Source of the DNA: an uncultured Marvinbryantia sp.
GTDB taxonomy: Bacteria; Bacillota; Clostridia; Lachnospirales; Lachnospiraceae
Reading direction: 5' to 3'
NCBI GenBank assembly: GCA_934394985.1
Contig: CAKRRF010000009.1
Span: 1 to 64,000 of the forward strand
Length of the DNA: 64,000 nucleotides
The translations under genes were made by a program, and so were the position numbers. Positions 7,589-64,000 of the stretch are shown in pieces. The notes under the pieces were generated by a model that was given only the letters and a program-made list of their open reading frames with translations, did no database searches and was not told the DNA's origin. Numbering within the stretch: position 1 is the first letter of the stretch; every line of letters starts with the position of its first letter.

Positions 7589-8593
7589 TTACAAATCGGC
7601 AGAGGTATCTCTTGGCACTATTTCGCCTTTTACCACCGTTTTCTGACTGACTATTTCTTTTTTCAGTATCTTCATCAACAAATCTACTGCCAGACTCCCT
7701 GCCTCGCGCATATGATTATCCATCGTACTGATCTCCGGTTCACTGCATATGCTGATCTTGGAATTGTTATATCCCAGAATCTGCATATCCTGCGGTACCT
7801 TCAGTCCCTGTACTTTTGCAAACTTGCATGCGCCTACCGCCAGTTCATCGTCTGATGCCATAATCACATCCCAGGTTTTCCCCTGCTCCCACCGCTCCTG
7901 CAAAAATCTTTTTGTATCTTCGATACTACTGTCCTTCATAAGCACAATCTGGTCTTTTCGCAGCTTTCGTCCACACTGCGTATACGCATCTTTTATTCCC
8001 TGTATTTTCTGTCTTCCGCTATAGGAAAGTGAACGGTACAAATATAAAATTTCCCGTTTCTGTGCAAGAAATTTTTCTGTTGCACACCGCATCATCTCCC
8101 GGTCATCACAGACTGCACAATATACATTTGATGCATCCAGATAAGCATTTACCAGCATGACCGGCACTTCTTTTGCCGCATCTATGATATACTGATTCTT
8201 TTCCATATTTTTCTCAATAAAACTGGAGCCTACTAAAATCAATGCATCCACTCGCTTGGAAAGGAGCAGGTTCATATATTTAGCCTTTTCCTTTGCCTCA
8301 TATCCGGTACAGCACAATAAAACATCATACTGATATTTATGCAATTCCTGCTCAACATCATAAACTGCTGAAGCCAGTACAATATCCGAACTGTCCGCAC
8401 ACATCACACCAATCGTATTCATGGTATTCAGTCCCAGTCCTCTGGCAAATACATTTGGCTGGTATCCGGTTTCTTCCATCACCGCCAGTATCTTCTGTCT
8501 GGTCTTCTCGCTGACCTTACTGTTCCCGTTCAGCACTCGGGATACCGTTGCAATCGATACCCCGGCCTTTTCTGAAATGTCATAAATATTCAT
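7589..8593 (-). CDS. LacI-family regulator of the galacturonate genes
   Basis: 334-residue LacI/GalR repressor with an N-terminal helix-turn-helix (MNIYDISEKAGVSIATVSRVLNGN) and a periplasmic-binding-protein-like effector domain. Start 8593 is supported by AAAAAGGGGG; an in-frame extension 17 codons upstream has no signal. It is the last gene of the uxaC-uxaB-uxaA operon, 85 nt after uxaA, so it probably responds to galacturonate or a pathway intermediate. Its likely sites are the ATGTAAGTGCTTACAT-type palindromes at 13350-13365 and 15546-15561. The link between this protein and those sites is inference from position. Confidence 0.88.
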   Translation of the reverse strand: MNIYDISEKAGVSIATVSRVLNGNSKVSEKTRQKILAVMEETGYQPNVFARGLGLNTMNTIGVMCADSSDIVLASAVYDVEQELHKYQYDVLLCCTGYEAKEKAKYMNLLLSKRVDALILVGSSFIEKNMEKNQYIIDAAKEVPVMLVNAYLDASNVYCAVCDDREMMRCATEKFLAQKREILYLYRSLSYSGRQKIQGIKDAYTQCGRKLRKDQIVLMKDSSIEDTKRFLQERWEQGKTWDVIMASDDELAVGACKFAKVQGLKVPQDMQILGYNNSKISICSEPEISTMDNHMREAGSLAVDLLMKILKKEIVSQKTVVKGEIVPRDTSADL

Positions 8594-59505: not shown

Positions 59506-59535
59506 AAGGGAATTCTGCAACAACAGAACTCCCTT
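59506..59535 (-). terminator. Terminator of the metal-ATPase operon
   Basis: AAGGGAATTCTG and CAGAACTCCCTT pair around CAACAA; GTTTT follows on the minus strand. Confidence 0.85.
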
Positions 59536-59583: not shown

Positions 59584-61665
59584 TTACAGCAGTTTTCGCA
59601 TACTTCCCAGACTGAGCAGCAACGTAGATGTATTGTGCAGCAATGCAGATGTTGTTGGCTGAATGATCCCAAATACACCAAGTGCAATCAAAGTGGAATT
59701 GATGCCTACAATACTGCGGTAGTTCCGGCGAATTCGTTTCATAAGCTGGTCACTGATTTGTTTCAGAATCAGGATCTGATACAAATCATCTGAGCTGACC
59801 GTAATATCTGCGATTTCTCTTGCCAGTTCTGCTCCATCGCTGATCGCAATTCCGGCATCCGACGCTGACAATGCAGGGGAATCATTGATACCGTCACCAG
59901 TCATAATCACCTTGTGCCCTGCTGCTTTTTCTCTTTCCACAAACTTTGCCTTGTCCCCCGGCAACACTTCTGCATAGAACTCATCTACACCGACTTTTTC
60001 CGCTATAGCTCTTGCTGTATGCTCATTATCGCCTGTCATCATCACTATTTTGGAGATACCGTTCTTTTTTAATGCCCGGATCACATCTGCTGCCTCCGGT
60101 CTTAATGGATCTTCAATGCAGATGACTGCTGACAGTCTGCCTTCAATTGCCATATACAACTGTGAGTAGTTCAATGGCAGGCTCTCCAGCAGGTATTTTT
60201 TTTCTTCCGGAATTGCAGTCTTCTCATCTTCAAATACAAAATGATAACTTCCGATAATTACCTTTTTTCCTTCCACTGAAGAAGAAATGCCATGTGCCAC
60301 CACATACTCGATCCTGGAATGCATCTCCTCATGCTCCAGTCCTCTCTCCTGTGCTGCATGTACCACAGCTTTGGCCATAGAATGTGGAAAATGTTCCTCC
60401 AGACATGCCGCAGTGCGCAAAAGCTCATCTTCACTTCTTCCATCAAACGAAACCACTTTCACAACTGTAGGCTTTGCTTTTGTCAGTGTCCCGGTCTTAT
60501 CAAATACGATCGTATCCGCATCTGCTACTGCTTCCAGAAATTTTCCGCCCTTAACTGTAATATGATGCGTTCCCGCTTCATGAATTGCATATAAAACTGA
60601 AATTGGCATGGCCATCTTCAATGCGCAGGAAAAATCTACCATCAATACTGACAGGGCTTTGGTGATATTACGGGTCAGAAGATATGTTAAGACAGTACCA
60701 CCCAATGTCCACGGAACCAGTCTGTCAGCCAAATGTTCTGCTTTACTTTCCAGTCCTGCTTTGAGCTTCTCGGACTCCTCAATCATCTTCACTACCTGCT
60801 CATAGCGGCTTCTGCCTCCAACAGCGGTAACCTGCAGGGTCAGTTCCCCTTCTTCCAGAACGGTTCCTGCAAAGACTCCTGCTCCGCAGCTCTTATGTAC
60901 AGCTACCGATTCACCGGTCAGAGATGCCTGGTTAACCATACCATCGCCCTCTGTCACAGTTCCGTCAAACGGGATCACATTTCCCATATGTACAACAATT
61001 TTGTCGCCTTTCTGAATCTGACTGCTGTCCACCAGAACTTCTGTCTGTTCCTGTTTCATCCACACTTTTTCCACATGGAGTGACATACTTCTTGCCAGAT
61101 CCCCTACCGATTTCTTATGAGTCCATTCTTCCAGTACTTCACCGATTCCCAGTAGAAACATCACGGATCCTGCAGTTGTATAATCGCCACGTAAAACAGA
61201 TACTCCAATAGCCGTACCATCCAGTACCGGCACCTCGATCCTGCGATTCCACAGACATCGGATTCCTTTCATTATATATGGGATGGCCGCTGCCGCATTA
61301 TAACAGGCTTGTAATGGTGCCGGAAGAAACCACTGCCTTGCATAATGAAAGGCCACCTTCCATACCAGCTTGTCCTGATATACTGCATTTAATTCCCTGC
61401 CTGAATTTTGAATATAATACTCTGGAACTTCCACATCTTCATAATGAAATTCCTGCAGTTTTTTCAATATATTCTGACGATCTGTCTTCTCACCACTATA
61501 ATAAATTACCGCATCACAGGTCTGATCATTCACCTTGATCTGCTCTACACCAGAAAGACCTGACAGAAAATATTGAAGCGTATCTGCCTGCATGTAACTC
61601 ATACGGTATACAGACATATGAATTCTCATCCGTCTTTTTGATTCATTCTTAATCTGAAACTTCAC
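59584..61665 (-). CDS. P1B-type metal-transporting ATPase (FezB-like)
   Basis: 693-residue P-type ATPase. Residues about 14-75 form an HMA-like domain without the CxxC. Core motifs are SLTGES (phosphatase, about 248-253), DKTGT (phosphorylated Asp389) and MTGDGINDSPAL. The membrane metal site, usually CPC or SPC, is SCALK (346-350). The usual HP motif reads EEHFPHSMAKAV. The SCA-type site and the DUF6110-like partner upstream are what I recall of P1B-6 ATPases of ferrosome (fez) operons, which load iron into intracellular granules. Manganese or another metal remains possible. The start is a GTG with GAGG upstream. Confidence 0.85.
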   Translation of the reverse strand: MKFQIKNESKRRMRIHMSVYRMSYMQADTLQYFLSGLSGVEQIKVNDQTCDAVIYYSGEKTDRQNILKKLQEFHYEDVEVPEYYIQNSGRELNAVYQDKLVWKVAFHYARQWFLPAPLQACYNAAAAIPYIMKGIRCLWNRRIEVPVLDGTAIGVSVLRGDYTTAGSVMFLLGIGEVLEEWTHKKSVGDLARSMSLHVEKVWMKQEQTEVLVDSSQIQKGDKIVVHMGNVIPFDGTVTEGDGMVNQASLTGESVAVHKSCGAGVFAGTVLEEGELTLQVTAVGGRSRYEQVVKMIEESEKLKAGLESKAEHLADRLVPWTLGGTVLTYLLTRNITKALSVLMVDFSCALKMAMPISVLYAIHEAGTHHITVKGGKFLEAVADADTIVFDKTGTLTKAKPTVVKVVSFDGRSEDELLRTAACLEEHFPHSMAKAVVHAAQERGLEHEEMHSRIEYVVAHGISSSVEGKKVIIGSYHFVFEDEKTAIPEEKKYLLESLPLNYSQLYMAIEGRLSAVICIEDPLRPEAADVIRALKKNGISKIVMMTGDNEHTARAIAEKVGVDEFYAEVLPGDKAKFVEREKAAGHKVIMTGDGINDSPALSASDAGIAISDGAELAREIADITVSSDDLYQILILKQISDQLMKRIRRNYRSIVGINSTLIALGVFGIIQPTTSALLHNTSTLLLSLGSMRKLL

Positions 61666-61677
61666 CGATGTCCGCCT

Positions 61678-61992
61678 CTATTCTGCTGTCTCTTCTGTAG
61701 TTTCTTTTACTTCTTTGAACTCTTCGTCTTCAAAAAGCTGTGCTTCAGCCTTTTGAGCACGTTCTTCGTTAATATCCTTCGCTCCTTCCAGAATATCTTC
61801 ACAGTTTTCCTGAACAGTTTTCACTGTTTTCATTACACATTCTTTTGCACGAAGGACTGCTGCTGTACACTGTGTATATACTTTCTTTGCATCATCACTT
61901 GCCAGAACCTTTACACCTGCTGTGCCAAACACAAAACCACCTGCAAAAGTTCCTGCTTTTTTCCAGTCTACATTTTTGAATACGTTTTTCAT
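61678..61992 (-). CDS. DUF6110-like small membrane protein, ATPase partner
   Basis: 104-residue protein. Residues about 12-32 (KKAGTFAGGFVFGTAGVKVLAS) form a Gly-rich hydrophobic segment; the rest is a charged helix with two Cys (YTQCTAAVLRAKECVMKTV) and a very acidic tail (EDEEFKEVKETTEETAE). It lies 12 nt before the P-type ATPase and is the first gene of the operon, with GAGGAGG upstream. I recall small DUF6110 proteins next to such ATPases. By analogy with fez operons it may help form or line a metal-storage compartment; this is inference. Confidence 0.78.
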   Translation of the reverse strand: MKNVFKNVDWKKAGTFAGGFVFGTAGVKVLASDDAKKVYTQCTAAVLRAKECVMKTVKTVQENCEDILEGAKDINEERAQKAEAQLFEDEEFKEVKETTEETAE

Positions 61993-62017
61993 GATTATTT
62001 CCTCCTCTGATTAATAT

Positions 62018-62073
62018 AAGTCGGCGCAAACTTCTTATTTTTACATATTACTATCATTAGTGTGCGCTAACTT
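62018..62073 (-). promoter_or_regulatory. Two tandem operator-like boxes before the metal-ATPase operon
   Basis: AGTCGGCGCAAACTT (62019-62033) and AGTGTGCGCTAACTT (62059-62073) share AGT--GCGC-AACTT and are 40 bp apart, about four helical turns. The second also reads TTAG-N6-CTAA (62057-62070), an inverted repeat like DtxR/IdeR-type metal-regulator sites. Both lie downstream of the -10, so binding would block transcription. Confidence 0.65.
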
Positions 62074-62083
62074 TTTCAGAGTT

Positions 62084-62112
62084 ATTCTACTTCACTCAGA
62101 ACGCTTTGTCAA
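62084..62112 (-). promoter_or_regulatory. Promoter of the metal-ATPase operon
   Basis: Minus-strand -35 TTGACA (62112-62107), 17-bp spacer and -10 TAGAAT (62089-62084), about 90 nt before the first start codon. Confidence 0.82.
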
Positions 62113-62121
62113 TTGCTGTAT

Positions 62122-63255
62122 TTACTGTTTTTTATCATATGTCTCCAGGAAATTATGACGCACCCCGCCACTCTTATATTCCACCACTGTATCCAGATTT
62201 ACATTTTCCACACTCTTAAAAATGTTACCCTCAACGAACGGATTCTTTTTCTTTAATGTAGCAATCAATTCTTTGATCTCTACACGTTTCGAACGGTTTT
62301 CTTCGTTGTTACATGTGGTACAGGTATCCGTAAACTTGCAGGCACACTGAATAAAATGCAAATCATTATAATCTCTCCAGGACTTGATATCATCTTCTCT
62401 GATCAGATACAGCGGACGAATCAACTCCATACCTTCAAAGTTGGTACTGTGAAGCTTTGGCATCATTGTCTGCACCTGTCCCCCATATAGCATTCCCATC
62501 AGAATTGTCTCAATCACATCATCATAATGATGTCCCAGTGCAATTTTATTGCATCCCAGTTCTTTTGCATAGGCATACAAATGACCTCTTCGCATCCTGG
62601 CACAGAGATAACATGGTGAATTTTCTATTTCATACACTGCATCGAAAATATCTGATTCAAAAAATGTAACCGGTATATTCAGCCTTCTGGTATTTTCTTC
62701 TATGATGTGTCGGTTGGCTTCATTATATCCCGGATCCATAACCAGATACTTTACTTCAAATTCAAACTTATTATGACGCTTCAGTTCCTGAAACAGCTTC
62801 GCCATTAGCATGGAATCTTTTCCACCGGAGATACAGACTGCAATCCTGTCCCCTGGCTTTACCAGCTCGTACGTATTAATCGCCCGGCAAAATTTAGACC
62901 AGATCCGCTTTTTATAAGTTTTTCTCAGACTCTGTTCCACGTTTTTCACAAAATCAGCATCTTCCTGATGTTTCATATAATCCATCAGCCATGCAACATA
63001 CCCGCCCTCCAGGCTTTCCGCATCGAAGCCCTGTGTTGCCAGATCCGCAGCCAGATCTATACTGCTTCTTCCTCTGGAACAACAAATAATCAGCTTCTTG
63101 GTCTTATCTACCTTTTCACTTTCTGCAACTTCTTCGCCTGGAATGGCCGTTGCCCCGGGAATTGCACCATGGGCAATCTCACTTTCACTGCGAATATCTA
63201 TCAGCTGATATACGGATGGATCCAGCTTTCTTAACTCTTCTATTGTAATGCTCAT
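62122..63255 (-). CDS. Rhodanese-TtcA fusion (tRNA thiolation enzyme)
   Basis: 377-residue fusion. Residues 1-95 are a rhodanese domain with an active-site-type Cys59 in IICCSRGRSS. The rest is a TtcA/TtuA-like ATP-dependent tRNA thiolase with the PP-loop CISGGKDSMLM (143-148), NSPCYLCARMRRG (Cys215, Cys218) and CACKF (Cys304/306), which could bind an iron-sulfur cluster as in TtcA, plus a further C-x2-C (312, 315). The rhodanese part may hand sulfur to the thiolase. The tRNA position is not certain. GGAGAAAAC precedes the ATG. Confidence 0.9.
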   Translation of the reverse strand: MSITIEELRKLDPSVYQLIDIRSESEIAHGAIPGATAIPGEEVAESEKVDKTKKLIICCSRGRSSIDLAADLATQGFDAESLEGGYVAWLMDYMKHQEDADFVKNVEQSLRKTYKKRIWSKFCRAINTYELVKPGDRIAVCISGGKDSMLMAKLFQELKRHNKFEFEVKYLVMDPGYNEANRHIIEENTRRLNIPVTFFESDIFDAVYEIENSPCYLCARMRRGHLYAYAKELGCNKIALGHHYDDVIETILMGMLYGGQVQTMMPKLHSTNFEGMELIRPLYLIREDDIKSWRDYNDLHFIQCACKFTDTCTTCNNEENRSKRVEIKELIATLKKKNPFVEGNIFKSVENVNLDTVVEYKSGGVRHNFLETYDKKQ

Positions 63256-63292
63256 GTTTTCTCCTTTTATTACTTTGTTTCTTTTTTCTTCT

Positions 63293-64000
63293 TTACTTCT
63301 GTACCTTTGCTGCCAGATCTTTCACTACTTCCCCTGCAATAATCAGACCTGCCACCGATGGCACAAATGCCACACTTCCCGGAAGAGATCGTCGTTCTGT
63401 ACCGTTTTGCCCTGCTTCCGCTGTACCGCCGGCATTTGTTTTATAGCTGATAATCTGATCTTCCATTGGTCTGATCGGCTGTTCCTCAGAATATACAACC
63501 TTCAGCTTTTTCACTCCACGTTTTTTCAGTTCATGACGCATCACTTTGGCCAGTGGACAGACCTTCGTTTTATAAATATCTGCCACCTGAAATTTACTGG
63601 CATCCAGTTTATTGCCGGCACCCATGCTGCTCATAATCGGAATATTCAGTTCCTGTGCCTTCATGATTAATGCAATCTTTGCTGTCACAGTATCCACTGC
63701 ATCTACGATATAGTCATATTCCTCAAATGGAAATTCATCTGCATTCTCCGGAAGAAAAAAGCAATTATGAACACGCACATCTGCTTCCGGATTAATTTCC
63801 AACATGCGTTCTTTCATTACCTCTGTCTTATACTGCCCTACCGTCTTTCTGGTTGCAATAATCTGACGGTTCAGATTGGTCAGACATACCTTGTCATTAT
63901 CAATCAGATCAAATGCACCAACCCCGGTGCGCACCAATGCTTCGCATACATAACCGCCCACTCCTCCAATACCAAACACGGCTACGCGGCTGTTTGCCAG
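63293..64000 (-). CDS. tcdA: E1-like tRNA threonylcarbamoyladenosine dehydratase TcdA, 5' end missing
   Basis: The frame stays open to the right edge, where it reads LANSRVAVFGIGGVGGYVCEALVRTG, so the N-terminus lies outside. The visible 235 residues hold the ATP-binding Rossmann glycine loop, DLIDNDKVCLTNLNRQIIA with the E1-type Asn and Arg residues, YDYIVDAVDTVTAK, and SSMGAGNKLDASKFQVADIYKTKVCPLAKVMR, typical of TcdA/CsdL, which cyclises t6A to ct6A in tRNAs. Other ThiF/MoeB members are less likely. It lies 37 nt upstream of the TtcA fusion, so the pair forms a tRNA-modification unit. Confidence 0.88.
   Translation of the reverse strand: MANSRVAVFGIGGVGGYVCEALVRTGVGAFDLIDNDKVCLTNLNRQIIATRKTVGQYKTEVMKERMLEINPEADVRVHNCFFLPENADEFPFEEYDYIVDAVDTVTAKIALIMKAQELNIPIMSSMGAGNKLDASKFQVADIYKTKVCPLAKVMRHELKKRGVKKLKVVYSEEQPIRPMEDQIISYKTNAGGTAEAGQNGTERRSLPGSVAFVPSVAGLIIAGEVVKDLAAKVQK

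What the first reader, a model, noticed from the sequence alone, without database searches (positions are those of the whole stretch)
59584..62112. Candidate ferrosome-type iron-storage operon in a gut-type Clostridium relative
A P1B ATPase with an SCALK membrane site and no CxxC in its HMA-like domain is cotranscribed with a small Gly-rich membrane protein that looks like DUF6110. Known ferrosome (fez) operons pair a P1B-6 ATPase with small membrane proteins and form iron granules. If this is one, the organism may store iron in a membrane compartment. The two-gene layout here would be a minimal version.
Basis: partly seen in the sequence, partly recalled or inferred. Interest (0 to 1): 0.75.

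Follow-up and report, generated by a model that had tools for sequence, protein, structure and literature searches.

The report
Ferrosome iron-storage genes in gut commensals
A two-gene operon in this clostridial DNA is the closest counterpart of the fezAB genes with which Clostridioides difficile builds iron-storing compartments (ferrosomes), so this bacterium is predicted to store iron the same way, and the marker gene of the pair occurs in 79 of 200 sampled genomes of the bacterial family Lachnospiraceae.

Summary
Window 59584-61992 (minus strand) holds a DUF6110 gene (104 aa, E 1.9e-35) and, 12 bases on, a P1B ATPase (693 aa) with DFSCALK in TM4, HN in TM6 and no CxxC. In a C. difficile genome the only DUF6110 gene stands directly before the ATPase closest to this one (55% identity; next best 32%); order and annotation match CD630_05920-05910, the published fezAB, so FezA is a DUF6110 protein (39% identical to the window's). 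In a tree of 79 ATPases the 55 rows without CPC, window and C. difficile included, separate from 24 CPC (Cu/Zn/Cd-type) rows. Two genes are thus the C. difficile layout, not a reduced one. In relatives the operon often follows feoB (25 of 66 loci) and a Fur-family gene (30 of 73), and 42 of 74 upstream regions have a Fur-box-like dyad (5.7% of controls); the window, with only 1.9 kb upstream, shows none of these. New around it: a conserved 26-residue microprotein before DUF6110 in 45 of 80 relatives, absent from the window. Ferrosome formation could not be tested. A new member of a known kind, likely giving many gut commensals ferrosomes.

The parts
61678..61992 (-). fezA-like gene: DUF6110 protein, 104 aa; hydrophobic glycine-rich stretch (residues 14-31, GTFAGGFVFGTAGVKVLA), Glu-rich C-terminus without His or Cys
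   Evidence: Pfam PF19605 E 1.9e-35; 39% identical to the C. difficile DUF6110 protein; AlphaFold2 three helices, mean pLDDT 67.7
59584..61665 (-). fezB-like gene: P1B-6-type ATPase, 693 aa, GTG start
   Evidence: 55% identity over residues 2-693 to the DUF6110-linked ATPase of C. difficile; tree; TIGR01525
61468..61659 (-). N-terminal HMA_2-like domain (residues 3-66), no CxxC
   Evidence: PF19991 18 bits, below the cut-off of 30; coordinates; C. difficile FezB likewise below cut-off, 26.9 bits
60616..60636 (-). TM4 metal-site motif DFSCALK (residues 344-350)
   Evidence: D-[FYI]-[SAC]-C-x-x-[KR] in 55 of 55 rows without CPC, in 0 of 24 CPC rows
59623..59637 (-). TM6 HN motif (HNTST, residues 677-681)
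   Evidence: HN named as a P1B6 feature in PMC9374683 (passage)
62084..62112 (-). promoter-like site TTGACA-17-TAGAAT
   Evidence: 11 of 12 consensus bases; function inferred
62056..62071 (-). first copy of a 16-base element, GTTAGCGCACACTAAT, holding the palindrome TTAG-N6-CTAA just downstream of the promoter; possible repressor site
   Evidence: the only TTAG-N6-CTAA in 64 kb; function inferred
62016..62031 (-). second copy of the element, GTTTGCGCCGACTTAT (12 of 16 identical, 40 bases further)
   Evidence: function inferred
59506..59535 (-). intrinsic-terminator-like hairpin after the ATPase gene
   Evidence: 13 pairs, loop 4, T-rich tail; number of such sites not above shuffles

Best explanation
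The operon encodes orthologues of C. difficile FezA (a DUF6110 protein) and FezB (a P1B-6 ATPase) and would likely build ferrosomes: FezB is predicted to pump ferrous iron from the cytosol into membrane-bound compartments that FezA is predicted to help form. Shown here: family, gene order, metal-site motifs, clade, co-conservation, and iron-gene linkage in relatives. Inferred from C. difficile: the substrate (iron), the organelle, and the role in keeping iron for times of shortage. Inferred from the region's anatomy: one transcript of both genes, and control of that transcript by a metal-responsive repressor that binds the palindromic pair behind the promoter. In C. difficile the pair is repressed by Fur and needed for ferrosomes; expression while iron is scarce would prepare the cell to sequester iron safely when it returns.
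For: C. difficile (genome G419; its sortase B is identical from residue 28 to 224 to PDB chain 5gyj_A and scores 409.5 bits to 4ux7; two of three listed papers that hold '4UX7' are titled on C. difficile sortase) has one DUF6110 gene, directly before the ATPase nearest to the window's. Order and direction fit CD630_05920 (hypothetical protein, Fur box) and CD630_05910 (ATPase), both induced by low iron and in a fur mutant (PMC6311696, passages), and named fezAB in PMC11651100 (passage); FezA and FezB are required for ferrosomes (PMC12574912, passage). Tree: split from CPC rows, 100; window and C. difficile in one set of 39 rows, 98. TM4 motif 55 of 55 against 0 of 24. FeoB upstream on the same strand in 25 of 66 loci with at least 5 kb upstream, 21 of them within 2 kb; a Fur-family gene within 2.5 kb in 30 of 73 loci with at least 2 kb upstream; Fur-box-like dyad (11 or more of 14) in 42 of 74 upstream regions, 4.9% of 2220 shuffles, 26 of 459 control upstream regions. 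Ferritin directly upstream in two other genomes (L150, L152), two feoA genes in a third (L160).
Against: No experiment on this organism. The window's own promoter has no Fur-box-like match (9 of 14, chance level), although the same scan scores C. difficile's promoter only 10, where a Fur box is reported. In two samples not chosen by the ATPase the dyad is less frequent: 12 of 27 (family) and 7 of 30 (class). 41 of 66 loci have no feoB in the stretch held upstream, and the window has none in its 64 kb, of which only 1.9 kb lie upstream. NCBIfam's cadmium-type model TIGR01512 scores above its cut-off (354.5 against 313.5 bits). DUF6110 proteins have also been proposed to assemble P1B6 ATPases into membrane platforms like PacL1, which need not be organelles (PMC9374683, passages).
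Confidence: 0.78

Rival explanations
1. The pair is an iron efflux platform in the cell membrane: DUF6110 acts as a PacL-like scaffold that gathers the P1B-6 ATPase, which exports excess Fe(II) out of the cell; no organelle is formed.
For: DUF6110 is related to DUF1490/PacL1, which scaffolds CtpC foci in the membrane, and is typically encoded with P1B6 ATPases (PMC9374683, passages and abstract). A P1B ATPase pumping away from the cytosol fits either destination.
Against: The C. difficile orthologues are required for ferrosomes and are induced by low iron, the reverse of what an efflux pump needs; in many relatives the operon sits beside feoB and a Fur-family gene. [quoted passage not shown]
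Confidence: 0.15
2. The same machinery stores or exports another divalent metal (Mn, Zn, Co) in this lineage.
For: Metal specificity was not measured; the window's promoter lacks a Fur-box-like match and carries a different palindrome; TIGR01512 (cadmium type) is above cut-off.
Against: TM4 and TM6 motifs are those of C. difficile FezB; feoB, Fur-family and ferritin neighbours in relatives point to iron.
Confidence: 0.06
3. An ordinary Zn/Cd/Cu exporter of the CPC kind with an unrelated small gene beside it.
For: One close relative (P0045, 89% identical) is named a copper-exporting and a Cd(2+)-exporting ATPase by two sources.
Against: No CPC motif, separate clade, and steady pairing with DUF6110: 80 of 80, and in samples not chosen by the ATPase 28 of 30 and 27 of 27.
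Confidence: 0.01

Closest known systems
fezAB of Clostridioides difficile (CD630_05920-05910)
   Same: Same two protein families, order and strand; ATPase 55% and DUF6110 protein 39% identical; same TM4 (DFSCALK) and TM6 (HN) motifs
   Different: Shorter DUF6110 protein (104 against 131 aa); no Fur-box-like match in the window's promoter, a different palindrome pair instead
Multi-gene fez-like clusters on plasmids of Cereibacter azotoformans and Arcobacter (their likeness to the ferrosome clusters of Gram-negative bacteria is recalled)
   Same: SC- or AC-motif P1B ATPase (DYACPVK, DYSCALK) with HN in TM6; HMA2-type protein and FeoA and TonB-receptor neighbours in Cereibacter; a YtxH-annotated small protein directly before the ATPase in Arcobacter
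   Different: More small proteins; ATPases only 31-36% identical; none of three tested small Cereibacter proteins is DUF6110
PacL1-CtpC zinc efflux platform of Mycobacterium tuberculosis (PMC9374683)
   Same: Small single-span membrane protein plus P1B ATPase; HN in TM6
   Different: [quoted passage not shown] zinc resistance

Membership tests
fezAB ferrosome operon (C. difficile type) | FezB: P1B-6 ATPase with SC-x-x-K in TM4 in place of CPC | tested here: met
   DFSCALK in the window and in C. difficile; 55 of 55 rows without CPC, 0 of 24 CPC rows
fezAB ferrosome operon (C. difficile type) | HN motif in TM6 (P1B6 feature) | tested here: met
   HNTST at 677-681; of 55 rows 46 fit the pattern, 8 more show HN by eye, 1 is truncated; 2 of 24 CPC rows also fit
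fezAB ferrosome operon (C. difficile type) | FezA: small DUF6110 membrane protein encoded just before fezB | tested here: met
   PF19605 E 1.9e-35; C. difficile protein in the same family, 39% identical; 12-base gap
fezAB ferrosome operon (C. difficile type) | ATPase in one clade with C. difficile FezB, apart from Cu/Zn/Cd exporters | tested here: met
   quick IQ-TREE, SH-aLRT 100 and 98, no bootstrap
fezAB ferrosome operon (C. difficile type) | Repression by iron and Fur | tested here: inconclusive
   window promoter 9 of 14, no match; relatives 42 of 74; the scan also misses the reported C. difficile box
fezAB ferrosome operon (C. difficile type) | Forms membrane-bound iron granules | not testable with these tools
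   needs iron-shift culture and electron microscopy
fezAB ferrosome operon (C. difficile type) | Further components (FezX, recalled) | not tested
   no held paper names FezX and no whole genome is held for the window
CPC-type Zn/Cd/Cu P1B ATPases | CPC motif in TM4 | tested here: not met
PacL-CtpC metal efflux platform | DUF1490 protein with C-terminal metal-binding motif | tested here: not met
   DUF6110 instead, Glu-rich tail without His or Cys

The most novel reading that the evidence does not exclude
Ferrosomes are a common organelle of Lachnospiraceae commensals, and many of their fez operons carry a third, unreported component: a 26-residue membrane microprotein (DUF6219-like, M-K-x-H-K/R-F-W-A-W-A-...-Y-T-G-Y-K-H-K) directly before fezA, in a module feoAB - Fur-family regulator - microprotein - fezA - fezB that joins iron import to iron storage; the window shows a lineage that has lost or never had the microprotein and swapped the Fur box for another operator.
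Probability: 0.35. Interest if true: 0.68.

Novelty: new member of a known kind. Interest (0 to 1): 0.45.

Why it matters
[quoted passage not shown] The fezA-like gene is in 79 of 200 sampled genomes of the Lachnospiraceae, and the pair is in named species such as Roseburia inulinivorans, Coprococcus comes and Fusicatenibacter saccharivorans, known to me as human gut isolates. If these form ferrosomes, stored iron in abundant commensals would compete with C. difficile for the same resource, and the question can be tested in culture with existing strains.

Tried and rejected
CPC exporter reading: rejected by motif and tree. DUF6110 on plasmids: no match to the window protein at E 0.01, though a Deinococcus plasmid has an annotated DUF6110 gene before such an ATPase, so that search misses distant members. 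PDB search with the DUF6110 protein: no relative (two hits at E 1.4-1.5). AlphaFold2 of the DUF6110 protein: three helices but pLDDT 67.7, too weak for a fold search, and none was run. A Fur box in the window's promoter: none found. Whether the nearest tree neighbour L006 shares the window's palindrome: it does not. Microprotein in the window: none by pattern over 64 kb. Microprotein in C. difficile: no match up to E 1 in the genome. Literature: 'ferrosome' 30 papers, 29 listed; 'FezX' 0; 'DUF6219' 0; 'ferrosome' with 'Lachnospiraceae' 1 paper, of which I saw the ferrosome passages only; a wider search gave 1,046 papers, of which I saw 10 in the listing; a Fur-regulon search gave none. The two founding ferrosome papers are not held; what I say of them comes from other papers' passages or is recalled. 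First count of the DUF6110-ATPase adjacency gave 27 of 30 and 26 of 27; its misses include frames that overlap or that the distance rule cut, so I recounted from domain positions: there the rule passes 27 of 30 and 25 of 27, and the three failures other than L116 and L120 have the ATPase match starting 0 to 4 bases before the DUF6110 match ends, hence 28 of 30 and 27 of 27.
Full report
What is there. On the minus strand of the window, 61678-61992 encodes a 104-residue protein and 59584-61665 a 693-residue ATPase, 12 bases apart. A near-consensus promoter (62112-62084) lies in the 129-base gap to the upstream gene, and a 13-pair terminator-like hairpin follows the ATPase; such sites are not more frequent in the region than in shuffles, so one transcript is likely rather than shown. 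The small protein is DUF6110 (PF19605, 121 bits against a cut-off of 26). The ATPase is a heavy-metal P1B ATPase (TIGR01525) with DFSCALK in TM4, HNTST in TM6, the P-type catalytic motifs and no CxxC in its first 90 residues. Neighbours are a rhodanese/PP-loop protein (nearest to tRNA-thiolation families) and a ThiF-family protein upstream, and TrkA, TrkH and a TetR-family regulator downstream. No whole genome is held for the window, and the window ends 1.9 kb upstream of the promoter.

The pair is conserved. All 80 have a DUF6110-matching frame upstream on the same strand, the ATPase match beginning -16 to 299 bases after it; in L006, L041 and L052 only part of the frame matches. The reverse test, on loci not chosen by the ATPase: of 30 DUF6110 loci of the class sample 28, and of 27 of the family sample 27, have the fez-type ATPase next to it (L116 and L120 do not within the 1.5 kb held). 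The family loci are the best-scoring ones of 79 genomes, as loci were capped at 30, three of them held already. DUF6110 above cut-off was found in 24 of 391 sampled genomes of the class and 79 of 200 of the family of Roseburia inulinivorans, the Lachnospiraceae, and in none of 14 named control genomes. The link between DUF6110 and P1B6 ATPases was already reported (PMC9374683, passages).

Link to C. difficile. The papers that founded the field are not held. Two others give the locus: fezAB is CD630_05910-05920 (PMC11651100, passage); CD630_05910 is an ATPase and CD630_05920 a hypothetical protein with a Fur box, both up in low iron and in a fur mutant at RNA and protein level (PMC6311696, passages). 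Genome G419 is C. difficile by its sortase B, identical to PDB chain 5gyj_A from residue 28 to 224 and 409.5 bits to 4ux7; two of three listed papers that hold '4UX7' are titled on C. difficile sortase (search listing), and that 5gyj is of that species is recalled. G419 has one DUF6110 gene, on the minus strand at 714 kb, with the ATPase directly after it, which is the order and direction that the locus tags imply. The window's ATPase is 55% identical to that ATPase over residues 2-693; the next best ATPase there is 32%. The DUF6110 proteins are 39% identical, and Pfam confirms the family in C. difficile (79.8 bits). So FezA is a DUF6110 protein, FezB is this ATPase type, and the window holds their counterparts. 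FezA and FezB are required for ferrosomes (PMC12574912, passage). That the original paper calls FezB a P1B6 ATPase is recalled.

Which ATPase family. In 10 genomes (one of them a Clostridioides) each has one match of 45-70% identity, and every other match longer than 450 residues is at most 34%. For a tree I took every fourth of the 80 loci and ATPases from part of the other loci: 84 found, 79 rows with the window after identical ones were dropped. Rows were labelled by presence of a CPC motif; the 55 without and the 24 with it lie on two sides of one branch (SH-aLRT 100; quick method, no bootstrap), and the window and five Clostridioides rows fall in one set of 39 (98). Some end branches are long, those of three plasmid rows among them. 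TM4 reads D-[FYI]-[SAC]-C-x-x-[KR] in 55 of 55 rows without CPC and 0 of 24 CPC rows; since the labels rest on the same site, the tree is the independent part. Against this, NCBIfam's cadmium-type model is above its cut-off; I take that model not to separate P1B-6.

Iron context in relatives. Of 66 loci with at least 5 kb upstream, 25 have feoB upstream on the same strand, 21 of them within 2 kb; 41 do not. A Fur-family gene (PF01475, 42.9-48.5 bits in four tested) lies within 2.5 kb upstream on the same strand in 30 of 73 loci with at least 2 kb upstream, in many of them between feoB and DUF6110. A ferritin gene (PF00210) stands directly upstream in two genomes of another lineage and two feoA genes (PF04023) in a third. 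The classical 7-1-7 Fur box (consensus recalled, chosen after I had seen similar dyads) scores 11 or more of 14 in 42 of 74 operon upstream regions, against 4.9% of 2220 shuffles and 26 of 459 control upstream regions from the same loci. Six of 80 loci were left out: L006, L010, L041, L052 and L073 for broken, gapped or uncertain starts, L001 for want of upstream sequence. Related loci are not independent. In the samples the share is lower, 12 of 27 and 7 of 30. The window scores 9, chance level, so Fur control of this copy is not supported; but the scan gives C. difficile's promoter only 10 although a Fur box is reported there. Instead the window has two copies of a 16-base element 40 bases apart just behind the promoter; the first holds the only TTAG-N6-CTAA of the 64 kb. 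The same palindrome class occurs in 7 of 74 relatives' promoters, where the rate over the same loci predicts 2.2% and shuffles 0.7%, and, as TTAGnnTATACTAA, in 9 of 30 feo loci. A metal-responsive repressor is a plausible binder; this is inference.

A new small gene. In 45 of 80 loci a 26-residue frame with a hydrophobic middle lies before DUF6110, its stop codon 78 bases upstream at most (14 bases inside it in one locus). All 45 have ATG, GTG or TTG at the same place and the same length; 42 distinct DNA versions differ mostly at third codon positions (pairwise identity 0.78, 0.87, 0.53), which speaks for a translated, selected protein. In the samples it is in 8 of 27 and 5 of 30 loci. It resembles Pfam DUF6219 below cut-off (20.9-24 bits against 27). 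Short copies away from fez exist in two of the 30 genomes searched (G006, G011), and longer DUF6219-like two-repeat proteins in others, so it is not exclusive to fez. The window and C. difficile lack it. No held paper mentions DUF6219. Whether it belongs to ferrosomes is untested.

How it likely works. FezB is predicted to move Fe(II) from the cytosol across a membrane; FezA, with a glycine-rich hydrophobic helix and long helices after it (model of low confidence), would help to form or mark the compartment. Induction in iron shortage, shown for C. difficile, argues against a plain efflux pump and for sequestration when iron returns. For this organism the organelle itself is a prediction.

Verdict. 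Observation confirmed, interpretation supported: a fezAB operon of the C. difficile kind in a Lachnospiraceae-like genome (placement by the tree of the ATPase only). It is a new member of a known kind, with value mainly in how widespread it is among gut commensals and in the feo-fur-microprotein module seen in relatives.

Noticed in passing
L007:7608-7688 and 44 other loci among L001-L080, upstream of DUF6110: Conserved 26-residue membrane microprotein, DUF6219-like, in 45 of 80 fez operons; absent from the window.
   Followed up: partly
L003:6943-7359, L067:7044-7508, L026:6990-7391 and similar: Fur-family gene within 2.5 kb upstream of the fez operon in 30 of 73 loci, in many between it and feoB.
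   Followed up: partly
L048:6648-7142: Fur DNA-binding domain followed by a DtxR-type metal-binding and dimerisation domain (PF02742) in one 164-residue protein: an unusual regulator fusion.
   Followed up: no
L003:6544-6939: FeoB-associated Cys-rich segment (below cut-off) fused to an HMA domain, encoded shortly after feoB.
   Followed up: no
L150:7212-7739 and L152:7204-7749: Ferritin gene (PF00210 for L150) directly upstream of the DUF6110-ATPase pair in two related genomes.
   Followed up: partly
window 60379-60390 (residues 426-429) and relatives: The P1B 'HP' dipeptide reads HS in 49 of 55 fez-type ATPases, the window included (5 have HP, 1 not found), while 24 of 24 CPC rows have HP.
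   Followed up: partly
window 62016-62071: Two 16-base copies (12 of 16 identical) 40 bases apart behind the fez promoter, one of them with the only TTAG-N6-CTAA of the window.
   Followed up: partly
genomes G421 and G425 (genus of G329/G419): Two of eight genomes of the C. difficile genus have no DUF6110 match.
   Followed up: no
L062:10426-12519 against window 62122-64000: A ThiF gene and a rhodanese/PP-loop gene lie beside the operon both in the window (upstream) and in Eubacterium ramulus (downstream).
   Followed up: partly
L006 about 7640-7970: The nearest tree neighbour of the window has an in-frame stop codon in its DUF6110 gene; real or an assembly error.
   Followed up: no
L116/L144 and L120/L148: Two DUF6110 genes of the class sample (genomes G383, G063) have no fez-type ATPase next to them within the 1.5 kb held in L116 and L120.
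   Followed up: no
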